Shown here piece by piece: positions 22,967 to 41,904 of a DNA stretch of 64,000 nt (its first letter is position 1; each line of letters opens with the position of its first letter). The DNA comes from Bdellovibrionales bacterium. Lineage in GTDB: Bacteria > Bdellovibrionota > Bdellovibrionia > Bdellovibrionales > UBA1609. The stretch lies in contig DAIDIG010000009.1 of NCBI GenBank assembly GCA_027459485.1, positions 1 to 64,000 on the forward strand, written 5' to 3'. A program made the translations under genes and the position numbers. The notes under the pieces are model-generated. The model searched no databases, had not been told where the DNA came from, and saw only the letters and a list, made by a program, of their open reading frames with translations.

Positions 22967-23042
22967 GGGCCCGTAGCTCAGCTGGGAGAGTGCCGCGTTC
23001 GCAATGCGGAGGTCAGGAGTTCGATCCTCCTCGGGTCCACCA
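22967..23042 (+). tRNA. tRNA-Ala (anticodon CGC)
   Basis: Acceptor GGGCCCG pairs with CGGGTCC (one G-T pair). The D-arm holds TAGCTCAGCTGGGAGAG, the anticodon stem CCGCG/TGCGG encloses TTCGCAA with anticodon CGC, and the T-arm is AGGAGTTCGATCCTCCT. Discriminator A and CCA are encoded. Length is 76 nt. The 3' end serves as the left attachment site of the island at 23043-39879. Confidence 0.95.
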
Positions 23043-24707
23043 GTTTTCTTTTGGAGTCGATTTCGCGAGCACATCAAATGGTTTTCGATAGTCAAATTGA
23101 ATAGTTCCATTTCGCAAAACATGGTTCGATGAAACAATTTGAACCAATTTGCGTTTTACGTCGGGCGTTGCGTTTTTATAAATGCGTTCAGTATGTTGCG
23201 CCAGTTCGATGAGAAGCACACCCTTTTCGATGTAATCGTACTTTTCGGTGCAGAAGCTTTCAATCTGGCTCTGAATTTGATCGCTCTCCTTTGTCCACTT
23301 GGCGTGCTGCGAACGCCAATGCACCTCGCTGATAGTTCCTAGCAGCTTGTCCTCGTATGCCTTGTCGATGTATCGCTCCAACATTTTGTGGCGATCTTGG
23401 AGTGCTGAGAGCTGCGTGCGATGAGTGCCGCTTTTTTCGGCGTGTTCTTTGCGTAGCACGTCTTGCATCCATGCGCACACTTCAGGTGTGAAACTGATCG
23501 GGCGAAATACAGCCTCAAACAACGCTTCGATTTCCACTTCGGTGTAATTCACGTGCCTGCCAATTTCTTTCATAAAACCAGTATCACGTTGTGAGCAATG
23601 CCCGTCAGACTTATTTCGTGAACAGTGGTAGTAATGGAATGTTCGCTCACTGCCGTCGACGAGGCTCTTACGTTTCTCTTCGGCGGTGACAGCACATCCG
23701 CACAGGGTTTCAGTTTCTTTGCCAGCCGAATCGAGAAGGCGACCGCCGCACCTCATCATTCCAATGTAGGGGCGACTACCTTGTGTTACCCGTCTGCGAT
23801 TTTTGCCATCCAGCACGTCCTGCGCTCGTTGCCATAGGTCGAAGCTAATCAGCGGGGGGTGCGCTTCTGGATTGCCACGAAAAAGCTGACCGTCGAAAAT
23901 AAAATCACCGTAATAAAATGGATTTCGTAACAGCTTGCCCAGCCTTTTTGCGCTAGGTCTTTTTTCAATCCACGAAAAATTGCTCTCTAACTGGCAGTGA
24001 ACTTGGGCAAGCGAAAAATAATCGGTAGCGATTAACTCAAATGCTTTTTTCATATAGCGGTCGGGACCGTCGGCTAAAACAAATACGCTTAAAGCATCTT
24101 CGCTTGCGCGATAATTTCTATAGCCAAAAGGCCCCTTGCCAGGGAATAAACCTCGCTCGATTCGCTTTGTCATACCATCCCAAACATTTCGACGATGATC
24201 TTTGATGTATTTTTCATTCAAGTTATTGAACAAGTCCCATTTGATCCAGTCTTCAAGAGGCGACATCGACGTGAGCCTTAAACCGTCACGCACGCAGTGT
24301 AGCGTGACACCTGATGACCTGACCAAAGCCTCCAATTCGCGAGCTGATTCGCGGTTTCTGTTCGAGCGCGACTGGTGGGAAAAGACAACGTGTTTGATTG
24401 GCTGAAGTGTGGATTGGCTTTGTGCCACAAAATTCATCATGTCGATAAAATTGCGACGCTTCTCGTGCTTTGAGGCTGTCTCAGCGACATCCCAAGGGTC
24501 ATGAGCAAGCACTAAACCTTCACGTTCGATGTACCGGCTGATTGTGTCGAGTTGAGCCTGGTCCGAATGATGAGCGTCGCCCTTTTGTTTTTTGCTACTC
24601 ACGCGACCCATTGCAACCGTCAAATTTGTTGCCGGTTTAAATTCTTGCTCAGCAAACTTTAGGCGCAGTGGCGATTGTGACAGATCATTGATTTGTTTGA
24701 ACATCAC
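23013..24707 (-). CDS. large serine recombinase (island integrase)
   Basis: A 564-residue large serine recombinase. The N-terminal catalytic domain has GRVSSKKQ with the nucleophilic serine at 37 and [15 protein letters not shown], the DR-L-S-R-N-like active-site loop. A recombinase domain follows ([36 protein letters not shown]), then a cysteine-rich zinc ribbon (MMRCGGRL...LCGC...YHC...HCSQ) and a coiled-coil-like tail. Such enzymes integrate and excise elements. The last ten codons (23013-23042) lie inside tRNA-Ala, so they come from the attachment site. Starts with GTG (24707) or ATG (24704). Confidence 0.9.
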
Positions 24708-25231: not shown

Positions 25232-27424
25232 TCAATTCACCAATGGTCGTGTGTTGACATCGTTTACGTCGTTAAGCCCACTTGTTTCATTAACTAGCTC
25301 CGCCTCGCAATCACGGTATTCGCAGTTATCGGAGCTTTGAGCGTCAGAGTCTTGAGCTGGGGCGAAATGATCGAAAGTAGGGTTTAGATGGTCATCATGT
25401 TCACTTTGTTTCTCGTGGTTGCCTAACCCGTCGCTGTTCGCGATGGGGAGAATCCAAATCCATCCCTGAATGCCAGGTTTACCCTTTTCTCGAATTGGCC
25501 GAGATTTAATGCCTAGTTCTTTCATTGCCCTTCGTAGTGTTGTTTCGGCAATATTCTGAGCTTCGGCTTCTTTCTTGACTTCGGTTTGGTTCATTGGGCC
25601 GGTGGCGAGAATGGCCAATAAAAACTCCTTGGCTTCATTTAGGCGATCTGATGTACGCTCCGTCCTCTTTCCAATCAAAAGATCAAATTGTGTGAGCTTC
25701 GATTCGCCCGTCCATTCAAATTTTGCGGTGCCATCTGGGTTAGGTGAAATGCGAAAACCCAGAGTGGCGCCCTTTGAGGTAAGGTTCGACTTGCTGTGAA
25801 TAATAGCGCCATTGTTTGAATCGGACTTATCCTTGCCCACGAGCAAAATCGAACGTGAGGCACCAGGAATATCTATTGAACCAAGGATCCGATAAACAGC
25901 GTTATCAACCAGAGAATTCTTATTTAGATGACAAACAAGGACGATGGCACAATTGTATTTTCTAGCGAGATCTCCGAGCCGTCGTAGAGCCGGGCGTGTT
26001 TCGTTCGCTTGGCTCATGTCAAGTTTTGCCCCGAGAAAGCTTTGAAGAGGGTCAAACACTATTAAGGCGGGCTGATACTTTCGTAACTTTTCTTCGATTT
26101 TTACGAATCCTGGCTCGTCAAATTGAACGGGTTCATTGTAACAAAGCACATTTCTCTGATTTGCGCCCATCCACTTTAGTCGTTTCTTAATCGTATCTTC
26201 TACGCCGTCTTCTGCATTGCAAATTAGGACCCTTTTAGGCTCAATATTGTTCGCATTTGGAAGTCCAGGGCCTCCGCTTACGGCGGCAGAAATGGCGCAA
26301 GTGACGAAAGTTTTGCCTGAGTCTGGATCACCCACGATTAAGGTGATTTTTCCCTTGGCAATATATGGCGGCCACAGATACGTGATGTCTTCTTCTTTAA
26401 CATCATCAATGCAAATAACCTCTTCATCCGGCAATGTTGTTGGGTCGAGCGGCGCCGACGCCTGAACGGCCGACATGAAGTCACCGCCACCCATCAGTAA
26501 CTCATTGGCATCCTTCGGGCCGTCGTTTTTTCCCTGACGAGTTTTGACAATATAAGTTCGATCAAAGCCAAGCTTTTCGGCAAATTTCGTCGAAAATTCG
26601 CGACCTGTTTCATCGTCATCCATCCATAAGAAAATTTTTTTAAAGGGATCGAGAGTTGTAACAAGATCATCAGAAAGTGACCCTGCGCCATCTGGAAGAC
26701 TGATTGCTGGTATTCCCGTCTTTTGATTGACGCTCATTGCGTCTATTTCGCCTTCGGTAATGCAGATCTCTTGGGCGCCGTTTGGTACTGTTTGTAACCC
26801 AAACCAATACGAGCGCCCACCGCCCGGTTTTAAGCGAAAAGTTTTAAAGTCGATGGGCCGCAATTTTACGCGAACAGTTTTCTCTTCACGTTTGCCATTT
26901 TTTTCAAAGATCATAATTGCGGGAAAGGTCACGCAATCGTGATTAACCGTTTGGCCTTTCAGGGGATCGTCATCAGCTTCGTGTCTAAATTCCTCATTAG
27001 TCGCTCCAACGCTATATTTTTTAATCGTCTCATGGCTTAAACCGCGGCTTTTCAAATATTCGCGAACGCGCATATTAGATGATAATTGGTTTGGGTAATC
27101 TTTCGTAATTGGCGGTGGATCGTTAAATGCTTTTTTCTTTGAAGCTTTAGGTTTGTTATTGCAATCTGTCGCATCTCCAAATTTTCGAGTGAAATCAAAA
27201 AAGGAACCTTTGGCATTACATCTGTGGCAATTAAATGCTCCACTCATTCGATTAACATATAATTTCCATTGATTTTCAGCTTTGCTAGTGTCGCCTTGGC
27301 AAAACGGACATATTTTGACATTAATCTCGTTGCCGCTACTAGCAATTTTAATTTCACCACACGTGCGCCTCACATATGATTCGGTACCTTCCGTAGTTTT
27401 ATTGTAACCTTTAGTGGCTGTCAT
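25232..27424 (-). CDS. primase-helicase fusion protein
   Basis: A 730-residue protein. An N-terminal CHC2-like zinc finger (Cys39, Cys42, Cys66, Cys69) is followed by a TOPRIM domain (ICITEGEIDAM with Glu225; FLWMDDDETG with Asp269-271). A RecA-like helicase follows, with Walker A IVGDPDSGKTF (about 363-373) and Walker B LIVFDPLQ (Asp455). Near the C-terminus a winged-helix-like region occurs (NQTEVKKEAEAQNIAETTLR). This combination is a T7 gp4-like or RepA-like element replication enzyme: it makes primers and unwinds DNA. It suggests the island can replicate its own circle. Its start overlaps the 87-aa gene. Confidence 0.88.
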   Translation of the reverse strand: MTATKGYNKTTEGTESYVRRTCGEIKIASSGNEINVKICPFCQGDTSKAENQWKLYVNRMSGAFNCHRCNAKGSFFDFTRKFGDATDCNNKPKASKKKAFNDPPPITKDYPNQLSSNMRVREYLKSRGLSHETIKKYSVGATNEEFRHEADDDPLKGQTVNHDCVTFPAIMIFEKNGKREEKTVRVKLRPIDFKTFRLKPGGGRSYWFGLQTVPNGAQEICITEGEIDAMSVNQKTGIPAISLPDGAGSLSDDLVTTLDPFKKIFLWMDDDETGREFSTKFAEKLGFDRTYIVKTRQGKNDGPKDANELLMGGGDFMSAVQASAPLDPTTLPDEEVICIDDVKEEDITYLWPPYIAKGKITLIVGDPDSGKTFVTCAISAAVSGGPGLPNANNIEPKRVLICNAEDGVEDTIKKRLKWMGANQRNVLCYNEPVQFDEPGFVKIEEKLRKYQPALIVFDPLQSFLGAKLDMSQANETRPALRRLGDLARKYNCAIVLVCHLNKNSLVDNAVYRILGSIDIPGASRSILLVGKDKSDSNNGAIIHSKSNLTSKGATLGFRISPNPDGTAKFEWTGESKLTQFDLLIGKRTERTSDRLNEAKEFLLAILATGPMNQTEVKKEAEAQNIAETTLRRAMKELGIKSRPIREKGKPGIQGWIWILPIANSDGLGNHEKQSEHDDHLNPTFDHFAPAQDSDAQSSDNCEYRDCEAELVNETSGLNDVNDVNTRPLVN

Positions 27425-28927: not shown

Positions 28928-29131
28928 TTATTTAAGATCAGATTTTCGGAGCGAAGGCATACCAGCAATTACTAGGCGCCGAGCCAGCCCGCTCGCGTTT
29001 AACGGCATTCCCGCCTCATCTTTGAGTTTTGAAGCATGGGTTTCAAGCTGCGCATACAAATCAGGTGCAATGCGAAAGCTAATCACTCGCGTTTCAGTTT
29101 TCGGCGCCCGTTGGGGTGATTTTTTTGCCAT
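28928..29131 (-). CDS. ribbon-helix-helix DNA-binding protein
   Basis: A 67-residue protein with basic N-terminus then ETRVISFRIAPDLYAQLETHA and ...GLARRLVIAGM: a beta strand followed by two helices, the CopG/Arc ribbon-helix-helix pattern. It is transcribed away from the resolvase; the shared intergenic region holds three TGATAC repeats at nine-base steps, a usual kind of target for such dimers. It probably represses both directions, controlling the element. Confidence 0.75.
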   Translation of the reverse strand: MAKKSPQRAPKTETRVISFRIAPDLYAQLETHASKLKDEAGMPLNASGLARRLVIAGMPSLRKSDLK

Positions 29132-29167
29132 AAGCCTTTATCGGCTCAAATCAATTTAAAGTCAACT

Positions 29168-29224
29168 GTATCATTTGTATCAATAGTATCATAAGTTGAC
29201 ATAAGGCGTCAAGCCTGGTATCAT
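29168..29224. promoter_or_regulatory. operator repeats and resolvase promoter
   Basis: GTATCA (TGATAC on the other strand) occurs at 29168, 29177 and 29186, exactly nine bases apart, and once more at 29218-29223. A TTGACA (29196-29201), 17-base spacer and TATCAT (29219-29224) form a good sigma-70 promoter for the resolvase. The fourth repeat overlaps the -10 box. Transcription would begin around 29231-29232, at the resolvase ATG, so the message is probably leaderless. The regulator bound is inferred. Confidence 0.7.
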
Positions 29225-29231
29225 ATACTAT

Positions 29232-29963
29232 ATGAATAACGAGCCAATCAAATGCGTAGCGTATTCGAGGGTATCGACTTTGCTAGGCCAAAACCCCGAA
29301 CATCAATTGACCCATATTCGACGGTTTGCCGAGGCGCGCGGTTATGATTTGGTCGAGGAGTTTGTTGATCGCATATCCGGCGCTAAGGAGCGGCGAAAGG
29401 CACTGGACGCTTTAGTGCGAGATGCTCGCGCGGGGCGGTTTAAGGTACTCGTCGTATCGGGAATTGACCGCTTGGCCCGAGACACCCGCCATTTGTTGAA
29501 CCTAATTCATGAACTCGACGGCTATGGGGTGGCTCTTATCAGTTTGCGTGAGTCGATTGATTTCACGACAAGTATGGGCAAATGTACGCTTGCGATTTTA
29601 GGCGCTATCGCAACCCTGGAGCGCGAGCTATGCCGTGAACGCGTCCGCTCAGCCCTAGCTGCTAAAAAGCTGACCGCCGCTCATACCGGCTGGCGTTGCG
29701 GTCGGCCAGTGGCGGCTACCGGCGAAATAATCGAGCAAGTCATAAGCCTACATGAGCGCGGTTTATCGCATCGGGCGATTGAACAAGCATTAAACAAAAA
29801 AGTATCACGGACGACCGTCACGCGCATTTTACAAGGCCGGTACAAAAACCCTAAAAAATCCGAGCCACAACTTATTGAAATGATTGAACCCAAAATCGAC
29901 GATTTGAATGGTTCAAAAATGTTTGGTTTTGAACCGGCGAATAAGGCGGATAACAAACGATGA
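29232..29963 (+). CDS. small serine recombinase (resolvase/invertase)
   Basis: A 243-residue resolvase: catalytic YSRVST (Ser12), LVVSGIDRLARDTRHLL with the active-site arginines, the ERELCRERVRSAL helix E and a C-terminal helix-turn-helix (ISLHERGLSHRAIEQALNKK...RTTVTRILQ). It recombines DNA at short res-like sites, perhaps monomerising or inverting element DNA, and is distinct from the large integrase. The promoter overlaps repeats and the transcript is probably leaderless. Its stop overlaps a following small frame by four bases. Confidence 0.9.
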   Translation: MNNEPIKCVAYSRVSTLLGQNPEHQLTHIRRFAEARGYDLVEEFVDRISGAKERRKALDALVRDARAGRFKVLVVSGIDRLARDTRHLLNLIHELDGYGVALISLRESIDFTTSMGKCTLAILGAIATLERELCRERVRSALAAKKLTAAHTGWRCGRPVAATGEIIEQVISLHERGLSHRAIEQALNKKVSRTTVTRILQGRYKNPKKSEPQLIEMIEPKIDDLNGSKMFGFEPANKADNKR

Positions 29964-30070
29964 CAATATCCCTATCAATTCCAGGTTCCTGGAAAGCGTA
30001 CATTAAAACGGAAAAACGTTCCCAACTACCGCTGCGTGAGCGACAAAAATGCCATGCACGAAAAACGTAA
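29960..30070 (+). CDS. short coupled ORF, 36 codons
   Basis: The ATG overlaps the resolvase stop (ATGA) and the frame runs 36 codons, ending inside the next gene. It carries a basic C-terminal tail. It may be a small protein or only a coupling leader that passes ribosomes on to the Cro/CI-like gene. No homology is recognised. Confidence 0.3.
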   Translation: MTISLSIPGSWKAYIKTEKRSQLPLRERQKCHARKT

Positions 30071-30407
30071 ACGTCAAAAGGTTAGGTCGATTTTTGGTGA
30101 ACAGCTTGAACGCTTGGCCAGAGAACGCCATTTGACTCATAGGCAATTGGCCGAATGGGCTGGCGTTTCAACAAGCGTGATCGGCTCATGGCTCGGCGTT
30201 GGCGGTGCCATACCTGCTGACCTTATGCGCGTGAAACAACTCGCTGACCAGTTGCAAGTCGACTTTGCATGGCTCCTCATTGGCGAGCACTCCCAATCCG
30301 GAAATATAAGTTTGGCCGAATTGTTTGATGAAGTGCTCGACCCCAGCCTAAGCGGCCTGTTTCGCATTGAGTGCAAACGTTTAATTCCGAAAGGTTTAAA
30401 AAAATGA
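30054..30407 (+). CDS. Cro/CI-like (XRE) helix-turn-helix regulator 1
   Basis: A small helix-turn-helix protein: LERLARERHLTHRQLAEWAG and VSTSVIGSWLGVGG show the XRE pattern, followed by a C-terminal tail with SGLFRIECKRLIPKG. The start at 30054 (ATG) is preferred; a GTG 18 bases upstream is an alternative. Its tail matches that of the second XRE gene (30621-30983), so the two arose by duplication. It may control the operon or a host gene. Confidence 0.8.
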   Translation: MHEKRKRQKVRSIFGEQLERLARERHLTHRQLAEWAGVSTSVIGSWLGVGGAIPADLMRVKQLADQLQVDFAWLLIGEHSQSGNISLAELFDEVLDPSLSGLFRIECKRLIPKGLKK

Positions 30408-30583
30408 ACGCTCGCGCGGTCACAGTGCAAATCATCGCAATGCCAAGCCGAAAAGTTACGGCGGCGGGGCGCATGTACTGTGCCCGCGCCTTACGTATAA
30501 ACGTAATTGACCTCGCCAATGGTCGTTTGGAACTTGCTAAAAGATTACTTAAAAACGAATTCACATACGGGTTAATAGCATGA
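30404..30583 (+). CDS. hypothetical protein, 59 aa
   Basis: The ATG at 30404 overlaps the XRE stop (ATGA). The 59-residue basic protein has a helix-rich pattern (RALRINVIDLANGRLELAKRLLKNE). No motif is recognised. It is translated with the two regulators around it. Confidence 0.55.
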   Translation: MNARAVTVQIIAMPSRKVTAAGRMYCARALRINVIDLANGRLELAKRLLKNEFTYGLIA

Positions 30584-30699
30584 GCGTGAACAATGAGATT
30601 TTATCGTTGATAACTAAAATATGCCACGACGCAAACGAACCAAGGCGGTTGGCGCCTTTACAGAAAATTTTAACAAGATCTTACGCGAGCGCGGTTTGA
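30580..30699 (+). CDS. short coupled ORF, 39 codons
   Basis: The ATG overlaps the previous stop by four bases and the frame ends inside the second XRE gene. It repeats the pattern of the 36-codon frame before the first XRE gene, so a ribosome-coupling role is possible. It may not make a stable protein. Confidence 0.25.
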   Translation: MSVNNEILSLITKICHDANEPRRLAPLQKILTRSYASAV

Positions 30700-30983
30700 C
30701 AGTAAAACAGGCGGCAGAACTCATGCAATTGCCATACACAACGGTTGTCGGTTTCACGAATGGCGCGATGCCCAGTTCATACGAGTCAGTCTCTAAGTTT
30801 TGCACGGCGCTGTCGCTCGACTTCGAGTGGCTTTTAACCGGCAAAACGAAAAACTTTGATCCATCGCAAATTCCACTCGATCAAATTTTTCAAGAAGAGG
30901 CGACAAATTCGTTCTCAGGTATATTTAAAATCGAAGCAAAAAAGTTGATCCCTATTGGGCACAAAAAGAAAGGTCAACCATAA
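30621..30983 (+). CDS. Cro/CI-like (XRE) helix-turn-helix regulator 2
   Basis: A 120-residue protein with NKILRERGLTVKQAAELMQL and PYTTVVGFTNG as helix-turn-helix, and a C-terminal SGIFKIEAKKLIPIG that parallels the first regulator. It shares one base with the following nuclease-like gene (TAATG). The paired paralogues suggest two regulators with different target or timing. Confidence 0.8.
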   Translation: MPRRKRTKAVGAFTENFNKILRERGLTVKQAAELMQLPYTTVVGFTNGAMPSSYESVSKFCTALSLDFEWLLTGKTKNFDPSQIPLDQIFQEEATNSFSGIFKIEAKKLIPIGHKKKGQP

Positions 30984-31471
30984 TGCCAAACGCGCTACCT
31001 GACCGCATAATCGCGTCGATGAATCGTGAGAATCCTCTAGCTGAATGTCAAAACTGCGAGCGGGCGTTTCACATACAGCGCGCAAAACTTTTTTACGTCA
31101 GCGATATTGCTCCTGACACACGAAAACAAATCGACAGTTGGCGTCGTGAAATTGAATCAGGCCACAAAGAACTCCGTGAGCGACGTAAGCAAATGGCAAA
31201 GACGTCCACCGTCGGCGCTCAGTCTGTCAATCTCGGCTTTCTTTTTGAAGCCATCGCACCCGTGCTCCCGACATTTCCGTTTAACCCGCATGACTGCCGA
31301 GCGCTTGGCGACCCAATCGACTTAATTATATTTCACGGGTTAGCCGAACACGGGCGGGTGGATAACCTAATTTTTGCTGACGTGAAAACGGGGGCATCGC
31401 GTCTTTCAAACCGTCAGAAATCAGTTAGGGACGCAGTGAACAAGAACCGTATTGAATGGGGCATCTATTGA
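30983..31471 (+). CDS. Holliday-junction-resolvase-like PD-(D/E)XK protein
   Basis: A 162-residue protein with an N-terminal cysteine pair (CQNC), a basic helix and a C-terminal nuclease-type core: DPIDLIIFHGL with Asp113 and FADVKTGASRLSNRQKSVRD with Asp133 and Lys135. This follows the pattern of the small Holliday-junction-resolvase-related endonucleases. Acidic, acidic and lysine residues are all present, so activity is plausible. Its partner at 31456-31968 is a diverged copy. Confidence 0.75.
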   Translation: MPNALPDRIIASMNRENPLAECQNCERAFHIQRAKLFYVSDIAPDTRKQIDSWRREIESGHKELRERRKQMAKTSTVGAQSVNLGFLFEAIAPVLPTFPFNPHDCRALGDPIDLIIFHGLAEHGRVDNLIFADVKTGASRLSNRQKSVRDAVNKNRIEWGIY

Positions 31472-31968
31472 AAGTTGATTTTGCACAGGCACTCAGCGTC
31501 CAGCGCAACATTATCGGCATTTGTCCCATTTGCCAGACGTTTTTCCGTTTAAATGAGTGCCGATTTATATATAAACGTGGCCGTAAGGATTGGCTGGCTC
31601 GCATGTACGATCTTGAAAAACGGCTCGAAGAAACCGAAGTACGTCTCGAAGAGCGCGAGCGCGAAATACGTGAACAAGCACGTGAACAAGGGCGCGTTCA
31701 TGCCAGGCGGATTATTAAAAAAGCCGATCCGATTTTTGCAAGCTTAGGATTAAGCGTAAATGATGCCAAAGCAATATTTCATCCAATATCGTTTGTGGTT
31801 TTTGATGGACTTGATGACTACGACGATGTGGACAAACTTTATTTGTTAGATCGAAAACGCTCACGAGGTCGCACGCTTCAGAAAAGCATTGAGCGCTGCG
31901 TTTCAAAAAAACACTATGATTGGCGCACGTTTCGCGTAAGCGATGATGGCAAGGTGATAGAGGAATGA
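31456..31968 (+). CDS. diverged PD-(D/E)XK-like paralogue
   Basis: A 170-residue protein paralogous to the preceding gene: cysteines CPICQTFFRLNEC at the start, a long charged coiled coil (about 53-82), then HPISFVVFDGL and LYLLDRKRSRGRTLQKSIERC. The first acidic residue (Asp in DPID) is replaced by serine, while the D-x-K remains, so activity may be lost or altered. It overlaps the first copy by 16 bases. Confidence 0.7.
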   Translation: MGHLLKVDFAQALSVQRNIIGICPICQTFFRLNECRFIYKRGRKDWLARMYDLEKRLEETEVRLEEREREIREQAREQGRVHARRIIKKADPIFASLGLSVNDAKAIFHPISFVVFDGLDDYDDVDKLYLLDRKRSRGRTLQKSIERCVSKKHYDWRTFRVSDDGKVIEE

Positions 31969-32267
31969 AACGCGAACGTAAGAAAGTGCCACAGTTTGAG
32001 AGAACATTGGCAGACTGGAATTTATATCTAAGAGAAGGCGGTACAGTAATAAGGCAAACCATAACGAGACGACCACGGCTGAATAAAACGATTCAGTTCA
32101 GAACCACCGAGGCGATGGCCGACGAAATAAAGTGCGCTGCCGACAAACTTGGTTTAACAATATCGGATTACGTCCATCAAGCAGTGCAAGAGACACTTAG
32201 ACGGATGCCTACAAATGATTCAACATCTAAACGCAAGCAGAGAAATCAAAAGAGGGGGCGGAAATGA
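31965..32267 (+). CDS. ribbon-helix-helix-type protein
   Basis: A 100-residue basic protein. The middle KTIQFRTTEAMADEIKCAAD followed by KLGLTISDYVHQAVQETL is a beta-strand plus two helices, as in Arc/MetJ-type or relaxosome-accessory proteins. No relaxase is seen nearby. Its stop and start overlap both neighbours by four bases. Confidence 0.65.
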   Translation: MKRERKKVPQFERTLADWNLYLREGGTVIRQTITRRPRLNKTIQFRTTEAMADEIKCAADKLGLTISDYVHQAVQETLRRMPTNDSTSKRKQRNQKRGRK

Positions 32268-32692
32268 GAAGTTTGGCAATATTAGGATCGATGTTTTTCT
32301 TTTTCATCAGCGGGATTGCTTGGGCCTACGTACCTACAACTAAAGACTTCAAATTAGACAACCAAATTACGAGATGCTTGAAAATAACAATGAATGTCAA
32401 AACTATTCATGATGACCCAGATCTTCCGGCTTATCAGGCGTTGGTTCTGAATGTGAGACAGTTAACCTCTCACATCATGGATCGATGTTGCGAAGACGGA
32501 GTGCTGCCATGGTATCAGATTATTTCGGCAAAAGGAGAAGTTCTTCAATTCTTGCCATTGGAATATGCTCATAGCAAAGGGTTGGTTAAAGTCACAAACA
32601 TTGCACTTAACGATTATACCGCGAATAGTGAATTAAAAAGTGGCGGAGGTCGCCCCTATAAATTTGTTGTTAAATGCTCAATGGGTCCCTGA
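32264..32692 (+). CDS. exported hypothetical protein, 142 aa
   Basis: A signal peptide (MRSLAILGSMFFFFISGIAWA) precedes a cysteine-bearing mature part (CLKI, RCCEDG, KCSMGP). No recognised domain. It overlaps the RHH gene by four bases and is therefore in the operon. Being exported yet on a mobile element suggests an envelope-directed function such as exclusion or attack on competitors. Confidence 0.6.
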   Translation: MRSLAILGSMFFFFISGIAWAYVPTTKDFKLDNQITRCLKITMNVKTIHDDPDLPAYQALVLNVRQLTSHIMDRCCEDGVLPWYQIISAKGEVLQFLPLEYAHSKGLVKVTNIALNDYTANSELKSGGGRPYKFVVKCSMGP

Positions 32693-32718
32693 CGACGACA
32701 GGGCAAGAAGCTTACAGT

Positions 32719-33228
32719 ATGGACATCAAAGCACCTAAAGCTTCATTCCCAACTTGTGCCAGCCGTTGGCTCGTGGCATATCTCCTGCTGTTTTTCTCAT
32801 GCGTGGCGTTCGCCAAGAGTGCCAAACAAAATTCATTCCTGAAGAGCCTTCGAGCGTATTTGGCATCCCAGGCATCCAGTGACGGCGTCGGGGTCATTCT
32901 TGACGTGAAGCTTGAAGGTAAAATTCTAAGTGTGCACGTAGTATCACCAGATTTGCCGGTGAAATACTTTTTTTCGTTTTATAGCTATACCGTAATCGGG
33001 ACTGGCGACAGCCTGTTTGTCAATCATGACACCTGCAAATCTTTTTCTATATCGAAAATACGCCTCATAGGGATCGCCGCTGAAACGAAAAAGGGCATAG
33101 AAGCTGATACTGATTGCAAAACAGCGCACCGGATATACAAAATGAAAAGGGATGGCGTGAGTAGCGATAAGCTAACGAAAATGCTTTTAAAGAAAACACA
33201 TGCGTCGGTAATATGGAAAAGTTCCTAA
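32719..33228 (+). CDS. exported hypothetical protein, about 169 aa
   Basis: The start at 32719 (MDIKAPKASF) places a hydrophobic signal stretch (WLVAYLLLFFSCVAFAKS) close to the N-terminus; the frame is open from 32674, which is an alternative start. The mature part is beta-rich with a few cysteines. No motif is recognised. It overlaps the following PLD gene by 16 bases. Confidence 0.55.
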   Translation: MDIKAPKASFPTCASRWLVAYLLLFFSCVAFAKSAKQNSFLKSLRAYLASQASSDGVGVILDVKLEGKILSVHVVSPDLPVKYFFSFYSYTVIGTGDSLFVNHDTCKSFSISKIRLIGIAAETKKGIEADTDCKTAHRIYKMKRDGVSSDKLTKMLLKKTHASVIWKSS

Positions 33229-33752
33229 TTGTTCTATTATTTTGGAGTTGTCTTGGCAGTCCTGTAAGGGCTGCGCCTGAAACTGTCCCACTTCCCAAGA
33301 ACGGTGATACGTGTTTCTCCCCGGACCAACCGTGCGCTGAAAGGCTCACAAAATTTATAATGAGTGCCAAGAAGTCAATCGACATTGCGATCTACGACAT
33401 CACCCTCGACCAACTTGTGCATCAGCTCATATTACAATCAAAACGAGTACGCGTGCGAATCGTTGTTGACCGCAGGCAGGCGAAAGAGCGGTATTCTCTC
33501 GTGCCACTTCTTCTAAAGGCGGGTGTGAAAGTTCGCTACGGGCGTCAGCGAGGGATCATGCACAATAAGTTCACGATTGTTGACGATAAAATGGTCGAAA
33601 CCGGGAGCTTCAACTACACAAACGACGCATCGACCAGAAACCAAGAAAATCAAGTCTATCTGGCAAGACCTGGGACTGTCGAACGCTATAAAACGCGATT
33701 TGAAAGAATGTGGCGTGCGGCAACGCCGATTAAACAGTTTCGGGTTCGATGA
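33213..33752 (+). CDS. secreted PLD-superfamily (Nuc-like) endonuclease
   Basis: A 179-residue protein with signal peptide (MEKFLIVLLFWSCLGSPVRA) and one HKD motif: His117, Lys119 and Asp124 in MHNKFTIVDDKMVETGSFNYT. A single HKD domain of this size is typical of Nuc-type endonucleases that act as dimers. It would act in the periplasm or outside, degrading nucleic acids. It is the last gene of the rightward operon. Confidence 0.85.
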   Translation: MEKFLIVLLFWSCLGSPVRAAPETVPLPKNGDTCFSPDQPCAERLTKFIMSAKKSIDIAIYDITLDQLVHQLILQSKRVRVRIVVDRRQAKERYSLVPLLLKAGVKVRYGRQRGIMHNKFTIVDDKMVETGSFNYTNDASTRNQENQVYLARPGTVERYKTRFERMWRAATPIKQFRVR

Positions 33753-33797: not shown

Positions 33798-34160
33798 CTA
33801 TTTTTGGCCACGGCATGCTGCAACGATCAGCCGAATGAGTTTCTGCGGCGACAGTGGTAACGCCTTGGCTGGCAGATCGCCTTTCAACACAGCATGGAGT
33901 TGTGACGCCGCTGTTGCCGCTACACTGAGTTTTTGCATCTCAATGGTCGCTTGCTCCGATATTTTGGGCAGAACCTCTGTAGCAGCACGTGCGCGTGCCT
34001 GCGACCAAGCCTGTTTTCGTTTCTCAATCCAGCCTTCGGTTGCACTCCACGATTCAAGTGTGCGCAACGCTGGCGACCAGTCTTCATCTGAAATTTGGCG
34101 CAATGATTTGCCTTCTAAAAATGCGGTGAAAGCTCGTTCTCTTTTGTGTGCCGCAATCAT
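33798..34160 (-). CDS. small helix-turn-helix protein, possibly terminase-small-like
   Basis: A 120-residue helical protein with HKRERAFTAFLEGKSLRQIS and DEDWSPALRTLESWSATEGWI, resembling the N-terminal helix-turn-helix of phage small terminase subunits. No large terminase is near. It could also be an ordinary regulator. Direction opposes the operon ahead of it. Confidence 0.5.
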   Translation of the reverse strand: MIAAHKRERAFTAFLEGKSLRQISDEDWSPALRTLESWSATEGWIEKRKQAWSQARARAATEVLPKISEQATIEMQKLSVAATAASQLHAVLKGDLPAKALPLSPQKLIRLIVAACRGQK

Positions 34161-35886: not shown

Positions 35887-37104
35887 TTGGCGCGATTTAT
35901 CTGGACAGAAAAATTGTTGATTGAAGCTGCTGCGAAATATGAATCGAAAACTGAATTTAAATCAGCTCACCCATCTGGATATGCGGCAGCCCGGCGTATG
36001 GGATTATTGAATCTTGTTTGCGCGCACATGAAGGCTAAAATCAAGCCTCCTGGGTATTGGCAAAAAATAGAGAACTTAAAAAGTGAGGCACGCAAATATA
36101 GAACAAGGTCCGATTTTGCAATGCAGTCCCAAGGTGCATACACCATCGCTAAAAGATTGGGCGTGTTAGACGAAATATGTGGTCACATGTCGCTGCAAGG
36201 AAATCGGTACTTTAGGGCGATTTATGTTTTCGAGTTTGAAAACAATATGGCCTATGTTGGTTTGTCCTATAATGTTGAAAAGCGTAAGCAAGCACATCTC
36301 AACAGCAATGGACCAGTCGGGCGTACCGCCAAATATTACAATTTCGCTTTCAAACAATTAACGGAATACCTTCCAAGAAAAAAAGCCAGACATTTAGAAG
36401 GCGCTTTTTTAAAAACGTATTTGGATAACGGATGGCAGATTCTAAATACTGCTAAAACGGGTGGGCTTGGGTCAGGCGATAAAATCACCACCGAAGACAT
36501 CAAAGCAGAAATAGCAAAATATAAATATTTAAAAGACTTTGCTGCGAATAGCCCCAGCATCTATGCCACAGCGAAAAATAGAAGGTTGCATGGCTTGTTT
36601 TCGCATTTGAAAAGAGTGAAAACACCAGATGGTACTTATTCAAAAGCCTACTGCAGAAAATTGGCAAAAAAATGTGGTTCTAGGGCTGAGTTCAAAAAAG
36701 CATTTCCGTCAGCATACTCGATATGTGTCAAAAAAGGCTGGATGGGTTCAATCTGTAAACACATGAAAAGACCTCTGCCTCATAATTTTAAGTATAACTA
36801 TGATAGATGCGCTAGCGAAGCTGCGAAGTGCACTAATGCAACCCAATTTAAAATGAGATACCCTGGTTCATTTAATGCCGCCCATAAAAACGGCTGGTAC
36901 AAAAGAATCACTCGCCACTTTGCTCGATTGATCAAAACGCCAGCCGGTTGGAACTTCGACAAATGTCTGAAGAAAGCAAAGCGATTCAGTTCCAAGGCAA
37001 ACTTTAGGAAGAGTGAGTACAACGCGTACAAATATGCGTGCAGACATAAATTTTTGGATAAAATTGAGCGTCAATTAGGTTGGAGCAAGAGAAACGAAAA
37101 ATAA
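35887..37104 (+). CDS. GIY-YIG endonuclease with six helical repeats
   Basis: The 405-residue protein contains a GIY-YIG core: AIYVFEFENNMAYVGLSYN, followed by EKRKQAH with the conserved arginine and EGAFLKTYLDNGWQILN with the glutamate. Around it are six copies of a repeat of about 38-45 residues (two before, four after), each with pattern A.K...R.EF....P.AY..A...GW...ICKHM. Such repeats occur in phage-linked nucleases and are thought to bind DNA. TTG start with AGAGG five bases upstream. A homing or defence nuclease is plausible. Confidence 0.75.
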   Translation: MARFIWTEKLLIEAAAKYESKTEFKSAHPSGYAAARRMGLLNLVCAHMKAKIKPPGYWQKIENLKSEARKYRTRSDFAMQSQGAYTIAKRLGVLDEICGHMSLQGNRYFRAIYVFEFENNMAYVGLSYNVEKRKQAHLNSNGPVGRTAKYYNFAFKQLTEYLPRKKARHLEGAFLKTYLDNGWQILNTAKTGGLGSGDKITTEDIKAEIAKYKYLKDFAANSPSIYATAKNRRLHGLFSHLKRVKTPDGTYSKAYCRKLAKKCGSRAEFKKAFPSAYSICVKKGWMGSICKHMKRPLPHNFKYNYDRCASEAAKCTNATQFKMRYPGSFNAAHKNGWYKRITRHFARLIKTPAGWNFDKCLKKAKRFSSKANFRKSEYNAYKYACRHKFLDKIERQLGWSKRNEK

Positions 37105-38700: not shown

Positions 38701-39342
38701 ATGGAAAAAGAAAGACAAACCGAGATAAGATTAAAGTATCAGGAGACAATTAAATCGCTCGACGATCTTCTGATTTCAGTTTTGAAACATGTTGATACAC
38801 TCAAAAATTCGGACGCAGTCAAGTTTGGAAAGTATGGTATTGGTAGGCGTATAAACCGTATTCGCCAATGCCATAGGCGTTTCTATGCTACCTTTCAAAA
38901 AGAGTGTGAACAAATTGAGGTATCGGACGACGAACGTTTTGAGCAAACTGCGATGCTAAATCTTTGCCTTATCGACATTGCGGGAGGACTCGATAACCTC
39001 GCTCGAATGATTTTGCTGGAAAAGAAGGTATCGCTGCCAAATCTAAAAATTTCCCTGTCGAAAGATGAGACGTTGGATCACATGCCGAAAAAACTTGTCC
39101 AGAAAATAAATATATACACTGACTGGCTAGATTACCTCAAAGAGTTCCGAGATCCTTTGGCTCACAGAATTTCACCATACGTCCTGCCATACGTCGTGTA
39201 CACCGATGGTCGCAAAAGCTACGAATCTTTCTACACCCATGACTTCGAGGAGACGGGTTTAGTGCATTTTCATCCCCAGATGATAGTGGACGGAATGACC
39301 TTTCATGAACTCATCAAGGCTGGCATAGAAGGTACAGCGTGA
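38701..39342 (+). CDS. hypothetical protein of the island cargo, 213 aa
   Basis: A soluble helical protein with an N-terminal helix bundle and a central conserved-looking segment (FRDPLAHRISPYVLPYVVY). RDxxAHR-type patterns occur in HEPN-like helical proteins, but the fold is not certain. It starts four bases after the first gene and overlaps the third by four bases. Confidence 0.6.
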   Translation: MEKERQTEIRLKYQETIKSLDDLLISVLKHVDTLKNSDAVKFGKYGIGRRINRIRQCHRRFYATFQKECEQIEVSDDERFEQTAMLNLCLIDIAGGLDNLARMILLEKKVSLPNLKISLSKDETLDHMPKKLVQKINIYTDWLDYLKEFRDPLAHRISPYVLPYVVYTDGRKSYESFYTHDFEETGLVHFHPQMIVDGMTFHELIKAGIEGTA

Positions 39343-39725
39343 AATTTTATCGACCGATTGAATTTGAGATTCCTGACGAATGGTGGATCAAATCCGGCAT
39401 GTCGAACTTCAAACCAACCACAAGTTCTTATACCCCAACGACCAGCTCTCGGTGGCCGACCACGATCGCTCGCATCTCAGATATTCAACCTGTACGGCGC
39501 GCCTGTGGTTTTGGTGGATTTAAATTGGACAAAATGATGCCGGTGCTTGAAGCGCTTGTGAATGGCATACCAATACCACGGATTGAAGTTCACGAGTTGC
39601 CTGGGACTAATGATTTTCGGTACGGAATGCGGAATGGCTTTCATAGATTTCACGCCTCCGCCGCCGCTGGTTTTGAATACATTCCAATAGAAATCTTACC
39701 GTATTTTGACATCAGAAAAGGATAG
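39339..39725 (+). CDS. ParB/sulfiredoxin-like domain protein
   Basis: A 128-residue protein with GTG start overlapping the previous stop. The second half reads PVLEALVNGIPIPRIEVHEL then RNGFHRFHASAAAGFEYIPI, the pattern of ParB-like nuclease/ATPase folds (conserved G-x-HR). It may bind or cut nucleic acid or hydrolyse a nucleotide. It ends about 125 bases before the proposed right attachment site. Confidence 0.6.
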   Translation: MKFYRPIEFEIPDEWWIKSGMSNFKPTTSSYTPTTSSRWPTTIARISDIQPVRRACGFGGFKLDKMMPVLEALVNGIPIPRIEVHELPGTNDFRYGMRNGFHRFHASAAAGFEYIPIEILPYFDIRKG

Positions 39726-40217: not shown

Positions 40218-41720
40218 TTACATCTGATTCGTCGAAAGCCAATTCCCGTTGCTTGTATACTTCGAAATAAAATAATCTTGGGTGCCTTGCGATGAACCTG
40301 AACATGACGACGAAACTCCGTTGCACGATGCAAGATTGGCCGTTGTATCGCCAGCCAGATAGAGATTTGATGAATTAACGAATATTTGACCGCCTAAAGC
40401 CATGAGGCCGGTTTCTCCCAACTGCTTTGTCCAATCCCAAGTCCCGTCAGTTGCGTACTTTGAAATGAAGTAATCATAAACTCCTTGAGAACTACCGGAG
40501 CACGAGGCTGAAACTCCGTTGCATGAAACGAGATTAGCCGTAGTGTAACCCGTTACGTACACATCTGAAGACGCATCAACGGCTGTTCCAATTGCCGTGG
40601 TGGAGGTACCTGATTCGCCCAGTTGCTTTGTCCAGCCCCACGTGCCGCCGCTCGAATATTTTGAAACGAAATAGTCCCAGCTGCCTTGGGCGCTGCCCGC
40701 GCATGATGATGAAACTCCGTTGCACGATGCAAGATTGCCGGTCGAACGACCGGTCAAGTAGATATTCGAAGATGGATCAACAGAAACACTCTGCCCTTCT
40801 GTTGATTGACCGGCTTCACCCAGTTGCTTTGTCCAAACCCACGCACCGTTACTTGCGTATTTTGAAATATAATAATCTTCGGTACCCTGAGCGCCACCTG
40901 AACACGATGACGAAACTCCGTTGCACGATGCGAGATTGGCCGTTGTCGCACCCATGATGTAAGCATTCCCCGAAGAATCGACTGCGCCACTATAGCCGCC
41001 AGTCATCTTGCTTGTTTCACCCAATTGTTCGGTCCACTGCCACGTTCCATCGCTTGTATATTTTGAAATAAAATAATCTTCGCTGCCTTGGGAATTACCA
41101 GAACACAACGACGAAACTCCGTTGCACGAAACGAGATTCTTGTCAGTGGTGCCGAAAATATAAATATTTGAAGATGAATCAAGGGCCATGGAGCTGACGT
41201 TTGCGCCGCCACCAGCTAATTGCTGAGACCAAACCAAATTGCCATTGGGTGAGTATTTAGAAATAAAATATTCGCCACTTACGTTGGTCGAAATGATGCT
41301 GCTACTGCTCGCTCCCGCCACATAAATATTTGACGACTTGTCGACAGCAATAGCGTAAAGACCGCTTATCGTTCCGGCTCGGCCCAATTGTTGCGTCCAA
41401 ACGCGAGTTCCGCTGCCCGTGTATTTCGTAATAAAATAATCGGTAGTACCTTGGGAACCACTTGGGCACGACGATGCGCTACCGTAGCAAGGTAAGAAAT
41501 TGGCCGTCGTCTGCCCTGCTACATAAACATTATTTGAAGAATCAGCCACGAGTCCGAACACATAAGTCGTTGTATTATTGAGGGTCGCAAATGTTGAAGT
41601 TCCAGAAGGCGTCAGACCGCCGGAATTCCCCGACATCTTGCTGCATCCGCAAAGAAAGCCGCCAAGAAACAAAATTTTCGCACTCAAGATAAATGCATTT
41701 CGGAATGTTTTGAATTTCAT
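40218..41720 (-). CDS. SBBP-repeat beta-propeller lipoprotein
   Basis: The ATG at 41720 with GGGG upstream gives a signal peptide and lipobox LCGC (Cys26); a longer frame to 41765 is rejected. The mature protein has about seven repeats of 65-68 residues: DYFISKYTSDGTW.WTKQLGE and ...SSNIYVTG.TTANLASCNGVSS... Each repeat carries a C...C pair. Repeats are almost identical, giving DNA repeats of about 200 bases. It is likely a surface-exposed beta-propeller, perhaps involved in adhesion or binding; function unknown. Confidence 0.82.
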   Translation of the reverse strand: MKFKTFRNAFILSAKILFLGGFLCGCSKMSGNSGGLTPSGTSTFATLNNTTTYVFGLVADSSNNVYVAGQTTANFLPCYGSASSCPSGSQGTTDYFITKYTGSGTRVWTQQLGRAGTISGLYAIAVDKSSNIYVAGASSSSIISTNVSGEYFISKYSPNGNLVWSQQLAGGGANVSSMALDSSSNIYIFGTTDKNLVSCNGVSSLCSGNSQGSEDYFISKYTSDGTWQWTEQLGETSKMTGGYSGAVDSSGNAYIMGATTANLASCNGVSSSCSGGAQGTEDYYISKYASNGAWVWTKQLGEAGQSTEGQSVSVDPSSNIYLTGRSTGNLASCNGVSSSCAGSAQGSWDYFVSKYSSGGTWGWTKQLGESGTSTTAIGTAVDASSDVYVTGYTTANLVSCNGVSASCSGSSQGVYDYFISKYATDGTWDWTKQLGETGLMALGGQIFVNSSNLYLAGDTTANLASCNGVSSSCSGSSQGTQDYFISKYTSNGNWLSTNQM

Positions 41721-41904
41721 GTGAATAACCCCGCTTGGGTGAGATGAGACCACGGCAGTTGGCAACCGTCAATAGATCCTAGGCGAACCGTGCGAATTCT
41801 CGGATACTCGCAAACGTCCCGTTTTCATATAATTATTTTCGGCAAAATTTAAAAATATATAAGTGCTGATGATCACGGTAAATGAATGTCGGGGGCGCCA
41901 ACTG

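What the first reader, a model, noticed from the sequence alone, without database searches (positions are those of the whole stretch)
29232..33752. Compact eight-to-ten gene operon of paired regulator and nuclease copies
After the resolvase come two related XRE proteins, two related PD-(D/E)XK-like proteins, an RHH protein, two exported proteins and an exported PLD nuclease, most with stop/start overlaps. Duplicated pairs with exported nucleases in one operon are not a familiar phage or ICE module. It could be a defence, exclusion or DNA-processing system.
Basis: partly seen in the sequence, partly recalled or inferred. Interest (0 to 1): 0.66.

Follow-up and report, generated by a model that had tools for sequence, protein, structure and literature searches.

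The report
Mobile-element operon with exported nuclease
A tightly packed ten-gene operon on a piece of mobile DNA in a Bdellovibrio-like bacterium joins two related regulators, two related internal nucleases and a nuclease shipped out of the cell, and it proves to be one example of a widespread, apparently undescribed habit of this bacterial phylum of placing one kind of small regulator directly in front of exported proteins.

Summary
At 29232-33752 lie resolvase, XRE1, a 59-aa ORF, XRE2, Endo1, Endo2, RHH, two exported proteins and an exported PLD nuclease; 6-7 of 9 junctions overlap. The XREs are 38% identical; both Endo proteins are Pfam Endonuc_Holl, but Endo2 has lost two catalytic residues. 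The operon sits on an integrative element (serine integrase against tRNA-Ala, Toprim-AAA primase). The exact gene set was found nowhere else, and exp1/exp2 have no convincing relatives. But a regularity emerges across Bdellovibrionota. This XRE family often follows the same resolvase (10 of 20 loci), and the gene directly downstream is predicted exported in 53 of 78 loci (background 105/608), repeated in 26 of 39 (72/332); the upstream neighbour in 8 of 67. Exported DNases of three unrelated folds occur as cargo: SNase (9 loci), Endonuclease I (1), PLD (window). Best reading: an XRE-controlled cargo operon whose effector end is an exported DNase, acting as a barrier to foreign DNA. The coupling is shown; regulation and barrier function are inferred. 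Against transformation blocking: no ComEC found in the genome. Rivals: nucleic-acid scavenging or predation, mobilisation (no relaxase found), element maintenance.

The parts
22967..23042 (+). tRNA-Ala(CGC), attachment site of the element (left boundary)
   Evidence: ARAGORN; sister genome G332 is collinear up to the tRNA 3' end (window 23047) and then diverges
23013..24707 (-). large serine integrase abutting tRNA-Ala
   Evidence: PF07508 1.5e-6 and PF00239 2.3e-6
25232..27424 (-). Toprim-AAA primase/helicase of the element
   Evidence: PF13481, PF13155; phrog_239 1.2e-48
28928..29131 (-). small RHH-like protein (67 aa), divergent from the resolvase
   Evidence: no Pfam match; read by eye as RHH; a small divergent gene stands at this place in many related loci
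29160..29231 (.). intergenic TATCA repeats at 29169, 29178, 29187 (9-bp period) and 29219: candidate operator of the divergent pair
29232..29963 (+). small serine resolvase, RVSTLLGQ subfamily
   Evidence: PF00239 6e-39; 44-60% identical relatives in Bdellovibrionota
30036..30407 (+). XRE1 regulator, with the C-terminal tail of this family
30404..30583 (+). 59-aa ORF between the XREs (s59)
   Evidence: codon score 0.11, higher than the other five frames; no Pfam match
30621..30983 (+). XRE2 regulator
30983..31471 (+). Endo1: PD-(D/E)XK nuclease, PF10107, CxxC at the N-terminus, no TM helix, catalytic residues kept
31456..31968 (+). Endo2: paralogue with E->K and D->S at catalytic positions, probably inactive
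31965..32267 (+). RHH protein, weakly NikA/MbpA-like
   Evidence: PF21983 2.7e-5, below cut-off; NF041418 0.0012, below cut-off
32264..32692 (+). exp1, predicted exported, no convincing relative
32674..33228 (+). exp2, predicted exported (start may be 32719), no convincing relative
33213..33752 (+). exported PLD-family nuclease with HKD motif
   Evidence: PF13091 8e-25; Nuc 1byr 2.6e-15, NucT 6ehi 3.9e-9; signal peptide by rule

Best explanation
This is the cargo operon of an integrative mobile element. A divergent RHH / resolvase unit is followed by XRE regulators that most likely repress their own operon; the operon ends in an exported PLD DNase with two orphan exported proteins, and inside the cell there is a PD-(D/E)XK nuclease (Endo1) with a catalytically dead partner (Endo2) and an RHH DNA-binding protein. 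It belongs to a phylum-wide class in which this XRE family stands in front of exported proteins or lipoproteins. The exported DNase probably destroys DNA in the periplasm or at the cell surface (phage, plasmid or competitor DNA), while Endo1/Endo2, perhaps as a heterodimer with one active site, act on DNA in the cytoplasm. Shown: gene content, mobile context, paralogy, active-site states, the XRE-exported coupling. Inferred: co-transcription, repression by XRE, export, enzymatic activity, barrier function.
For: Gene directly downstream of this XRE family predicted exported in 53 of 78 loci (2 of 80 had no such gene) against 105 of 608 other ORFs, p 6e-23; second sample 26 of 39 (1 of 40 had none) against 72 of 332, p 2e-9; same-strand upstream neighbour only 8 of 67. 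Exported SNase in the first two genes after the XRE in 9 loci (Pfam), Endonuclease_1 in L027, PLD here: three unrelated folds. XRE within 0.7 kb downstream of the resolvase in 10 of 20 loci. Resolvase-XRE-DUF4268 (weak PD-(D/E)XK matches) in L304 and L309. Defence-model matches within about 4.3 kb of the unit in 7 loci: type I restriction L028 and L034, methyltransferases L025 and L133, dGTPase L029, PDC-S49 L035, SpbK-like TIR L037. A survey of PD-(D/E)XK proteins already speculated that COG4741 members might guard the cell against uptake of foreign DNA (PMC1189080, passages).
Against: No ComEC (PF03772) in this 99.8% complete genome, so blocking natural transformation here is unlikely. In the window the first gene after XRE2 is Endo1, not an exported gene; the exported genes are the 4th to 6th after it. 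Most XRE cargo has no recognisable domain, and only 11 of 133 loci carry a recognised exported DNase. The signal-peptide test is a home-made rule. Loci are related, so p values overstate. The 7 defence matches were hand-picked (8 proteins scanned), without a background rate. No padloc match for the window operon beyond generic PLD hits and one weak hit at 0.0085 for Endo1. B. bacteriovorus nucleases with export signals have been studied in predation and biofilms instead (PMC3593177, PMC7925074, passages).
Confidence: 0.42

Rival explanations
1. Predation or nutrition cargo: the XRE cassettes switch on secreted enzymes, nucleases among them, to digest prey or environmental nucleic acid, and the element carries them as a benefit to its host.
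For: The phylum contains predators; B. bacteriovorus has putative DNases with export signals, two of them induced on contact with prey (PMC3593177, PMC7925074, passages); cargo is mainly secreted proteins and lipoproteins; the nine SNases keep well-conserved aligned blocks round the active site.
Against: Deleting two exported nucleases of B. bacteriovorus did not visibly change prey DNA loss. Endo1/Endo2 carry no export signal by my rule. Whether this host is a predator is unknown.
Confidence: 0.24
2. Mobilisation operon: NikA-like RHH, PD-(D/E)XK and a plasmid-type PLD process the element for transfer by a T4SS in trans.
For: RHH weakly NikA/MbpA-like; relatives of the PLD are common on plasmids (at least 5000 records; 4200 of the 5000 counted typed conjugative), in L263 overlapping mobC; two VirB4-like hits elsewhere in the genome.
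Against: No relaxase seen among the element proteins scanned with Pfam and none of PF03432 in the genome; other relaxase families were not searched genome-wide; the RHH scores are below the curated cut-offs.
Confidence: 0.15
3. Element maintenance module: resolvase, XREs, RHH and Endo1/Endo2 resolve dimers or junctions and control excision and replication; the exported genes are passengers.
For: Resolvase, primase and integrase on the same element; PF10107 is described as related to archaeal Holliday-junction resolvases.
Against: Downstream genes differ between resolvase-XRE loci, as cargo does; PF10107 was found in only 2 of 290 phylum genomes, this one included.
Confidence: 0.14

Closest known systems
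Element-borne DNases that block transformation (V. cholerae ICE; C. jejuni CJIE1; the names IdeA and Dns are recalled)
   Same: DNase encoded on an integrated element; the class is cited in PMC11472951 (passages)
   Different: PLD rather than an Endonuclease I type (their type is recalled); host lacks a detectable ComEC; XRE-led operon with internal nucleases
Plasmid PLD nuclease Nuc (1byr) / NucT (6ehi)
   Same: single PLD domain; E 2.6e-15 and 3.9e-9
   Different: not beside conjugation genes; last gene of an XRE-led operon
COG4741 / Pfam PF10107 Endonuc_Holl
   Same: Endo1 keeps E, ID and DVK
   Different: CxxC N-terminus instead of a membrane helix; paired with a probably inactive copy
XRE-exported protein cassettes of Bdellovibrionota (found here)
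   Same: same XRE family with C-terminal tail, exported cargo, sometimes SNase or Endonuclease I
   Different: window has tandem XREs and three intracellular genes before the exported ones

Membership tests
Integrative mobile element | integrase at an attachment site | tested here: met
   serine integrase abuts tRNA-Ala; synteny with a sister genome ends at the tRNA 3' end; right end not defined
Integrative conjugative / mobilisable element | relaxase or T4SS in the element | tested here: not met
   no such Pfam match among the element proteins scanned; PF03432 absent from the genome; smaller ORFs not scanned, other relaxase families not searched genome-wide
Phage satellite | primase plus packaging genes | tested here: inconclusive
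   primase present; terminase-small-like ORF only at 0.0034, below cut-off
PLD nuclease (Nuc/NucT) | HKD motif and secretion signal | tested here: met
   PF13091 8e-25, alignment to PLD structures through the HxK and GS region, signal by rule
PF10107 / COG4741 endonuclease (Endo1) | E-(V/I)D-(E/D)VK motif | tested here: met
   E, PID, DVK kept
PF10107 / COG4741 endonuclease (Endo2 as an active enzyme) | same motif | tested here: not met
   E->K, PID->PIS, DVK->DRK
PF10107 / COG4741 endonuclease | N-terminal membrane helix described for COG4741 | tested here: not met
   absent from Endo1 and Endo2 (description from PMC1189080)
Transformation-blocking element DNase | competent host (ComEC) | tested here: not met
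   PF03772 not found; control rings in 10 of 14 genomes
Transformation-blocking element DNase | measured block of DNA uptake | not testable with these tools
   needs an experiment
DISARM / Dpd (PLD component) | PLD over the curated cut-off | tested here: not met
   DrmC 27.7 against 133, DpdK 24.4 against 100 bits; partner genes not seen in the operon
XRE-exported cassette family | XRE with family tail directly before an exported gene | tested here: inconclusive
   XRE1/XRE2 are family members; the exported genes come after three intracellular ones

The most novel reading that the evidence does not exclude
Bdellovibrionota carry a phylum-wide, undescribed class of cassettes in which one lineage of small XRE regulators with a conserved C-terminal tail directly controls exported proteins, and mobile elements have fitted these with interchangeable DNases (PLD, SNase, Endonuclease I) as an extracytoplasmic barrier against foreign DNA; in this operon it is backed by a cytoplasmic nuclease made of one active and one dead PD-(D/E)XK subunit, giving two layers.
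Probability: 0.2. Interest if true: 0.75.

Novelty: new variant of a known kind. Interest (0 to 1): 0.52.

Why it matters
If the coupling is regulatory, one lineage of repressors governs a large, mostly unstudied set of secreted proteins and lipoproteins in a phylum known for predators, and mobile elements exploit the arrangement to deploy exported nucleases. It gives concrete, cheap predictions: delete one XRE, look for one secreted protein; express one exported DNase, look for a barrier to DNA.

Tried and rejected
Homologues of Endo1 in viral contigs: 3 pattern matches, none a relative; phages 6 and plasmids 5 records, none covering 80% of the query. Resolvase relatives in viral contigs: 71 loci; none of the 71 carried a match to any other window gene tested. 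XRE2 in plasmids: none. exp1/exp2: three weak hits at 0.002-0.007 among 290 genomes, rejected; AlphaFold models at pLDDT 41 and 44 were too poor to search with. Outgroup check: in 9 genomes reached through loci (mostly Bacilli/Tenericutes), 8 had XRE matches but at 46 bits or less and over the HTH part, not the whole tail; a small, unplanned sample. Transformation blocking was considered first and weakened by the missing ComEC. Right end of the element not found: the sister genome showed no matching right flank. Sampling of XRE loci: order down to about 1.5e-20; left out were hits already held and three at contig ends (G046:C3, G115:C1, G151:C34), and one own-genome hit (G000:C5) was taken early; 120 loci fetched out of a longer list.

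Papers: searches did not show the XRE-exported coupling in their listings; only passages of four papers were read. The TIGR02147 idea (Bdellovibrio/Fibrobacter HTH paralogues beside secreted proteins) is recalled only; no paper listed held that term.
Full report
WHAT IS THERE. Between 29232 and 33752 on the + strand lie resolvase, XRE1, a 59-aa ORF, XRE2, Endo1, Endo2, an RHH protein, exp1, exp2 and a PLD nuclease. Six or seven of the nine junctions overlap. XRE1 and XRE2 are 38% identical. Endo1 and Endo2 both match Pfam PF10107 (8e-27, 1.3e-9) and each other over 70 residues. Aligned with four relatives, Endo1 keeps the acidic residue before the core, PID and DVK; Endo2 has K, PIS and DRK, so it has probably lost catalysis. 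Both have a CxxC motif near the start in place of the membrane helix described for COG4741 (PMC1189080, passages). The PLD has the HKD motif and matches plasmid Nuc (1byr, 2.6e-15) and NucT (6ehi, 3.9e-9). exp1, exp2 and PLD pass my signal-peptide rule.

WHERE IT SITS. A large serine integrase abuts tRNA-Ala; a sister genome of the same genus is collinear with the window until the tRNA 3' end and then departs. The element also has a Toprim-AAA primase/helicase and lower G+C than its left flank. No relaxase or T4SS gene was seen among the element proteins scanned, and PF03432 is absent from the genome, though two VirB4-like frames lie on other contigs. A small gene divergent from the resolvase, with TATCA repeats of 9-bp period between them, recalls an autoregulated RHH promoter (inference).

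IS THE SET FOUND ELSEWHERE? The whole set, no. PF10107 occurs in 2 of 290 phylum genomes, this one included, and the other is in unrelated surroundings. exp1 and exp2 have no convincing relative in 290 genomes or in the fetched loci. Viral contigs gave nothing beyond resolvases.

THE PATTERN BEHIND IT. I fetched 18 loci round resolvase relatives (18 of the 28 other genomes matched) and took two more from genome contigs. In 10 of these 20, an XRE of one family lies within 0.7 kb downstream on the same strand; in two more (L037, L041) it lies upstream; in 8 none was found. Of these 12 XREs, the next gene was predicted exported in 9, against 33 of 184 ORFs in the same loci. A profile of this XRE family matched 149 of 368 phylum genomes at 1e-12. 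I then fetched 80 further loci, chosen by XRE score and not by their neighbours: the first downstream gene was exported in 53 of 78 (2 of 80 had none), against 105 of 608 other ORFs. A second set of 40 gave 26 of 39 against 72 of 332. The same-strand upstream neighbour was exported in 8 of 67. So the coupling is strong, directional and reproducible, with the caveats of a home-made signal-peptide rule and related loci (for example L202 and L204 share a near-identical gene, and L198 repeats L133).

NUCLEASES AS CARGO. Among the 91 first downstream genes, Pfam recognised few families; SNase (5 members) tied with response-regulator receivers (5) as the commonest. Counting the first two genes, nine loci carry an exported SNase with conserved blocks round the active site, L027 carries an exported Endonuclease_1 and the window a PLD. 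The second set of 40 gave no further match to any of these nucleases, so recognised exported DNases stand in 11 of 133 loci (12 resolvase-linked, 80, 40 and the window). In L304 and L309 the XRE beside a resolvase is followed by a DUF4268 protein with weak PD-(D/E)XK matches. In seven resolvase-linked loci, hand-picked candidates near the unit match defence models (7 of 8 scanned), and L133 has a terminase nearby.

HOW IT PROBABLY WORKS. The order suggests XRE repressors placed at the head of their own operon, with cargo behind. In this copy the cargo has a cytoplasmic layer (Endo1 with a dead partner, an RHH DNA-binding protein) and an extracytoplasmic layer (PLD and two orphans). A barrier to foreign DNA fits element-borne DNases reported to prevent transformation (PMC11472951, passages) and an old speculation about COG4741. 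But ComEC was not found here, so the DNA in question would be phage, conjugative or competitor DNA, or the enzyme may serve scavenging, as may be so for exported Bdellovibrio nucleases. Function remains inferred.

VERDICT. As an operon it is a new arrangement of known families; the wider interest lies in the XRE-exported coupling, for which the seven paper searches listed no description.

Noticed in passing
window 35887-37104: GIY-YIG protein (PF01541 5.9e-6) in which a motif of about 40 residues seems to recur along the chain on both sides of the catalytic domain.
   Followed up: no
window 33798-34160 (-): 120-aa ORF weakly like a terminase small subunit (Sf6_terminase 0.0034, phrog_2414 0.009); HTH proteins of this general look lie near other resolvase loci.
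   Followed up: partly
window 39339-39725: Last ORF of the low-G+C stretch reads by eye like a ParB/sulfiredoxin-type fold; no Pfam match.
   Followed up: no
window 40218-41765 (-): Predicted lipoprotein made of beta-propeller SBBP repeats just outside the low-G+C stretch (PF06739 4.1e-46).
   Followed up: no
L202, L204, L233, L239, L244, L286, L314: In a minority of loci the same XRE family is followed by what reads as a response-regulator receiver instead of an exported protein.
   Followed up: partly
L036 8641-9354, L037 7380-8018, L194, L221: Similar lipoproteins recur behind the XRE; two first downstream genes show weak CsgG similarity.
   Followed up: no
L133 4493-6380: Terminase large subunit beside a tyrosine integrase and a resolvase-XRE-exported unit: perhaps a prophage or satellite.
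   Followed up: partly
G000:C5:113072-113380 (L209): A third family XRE in the same genome, followed by only a 55-aa ORF.
   Followed up: no
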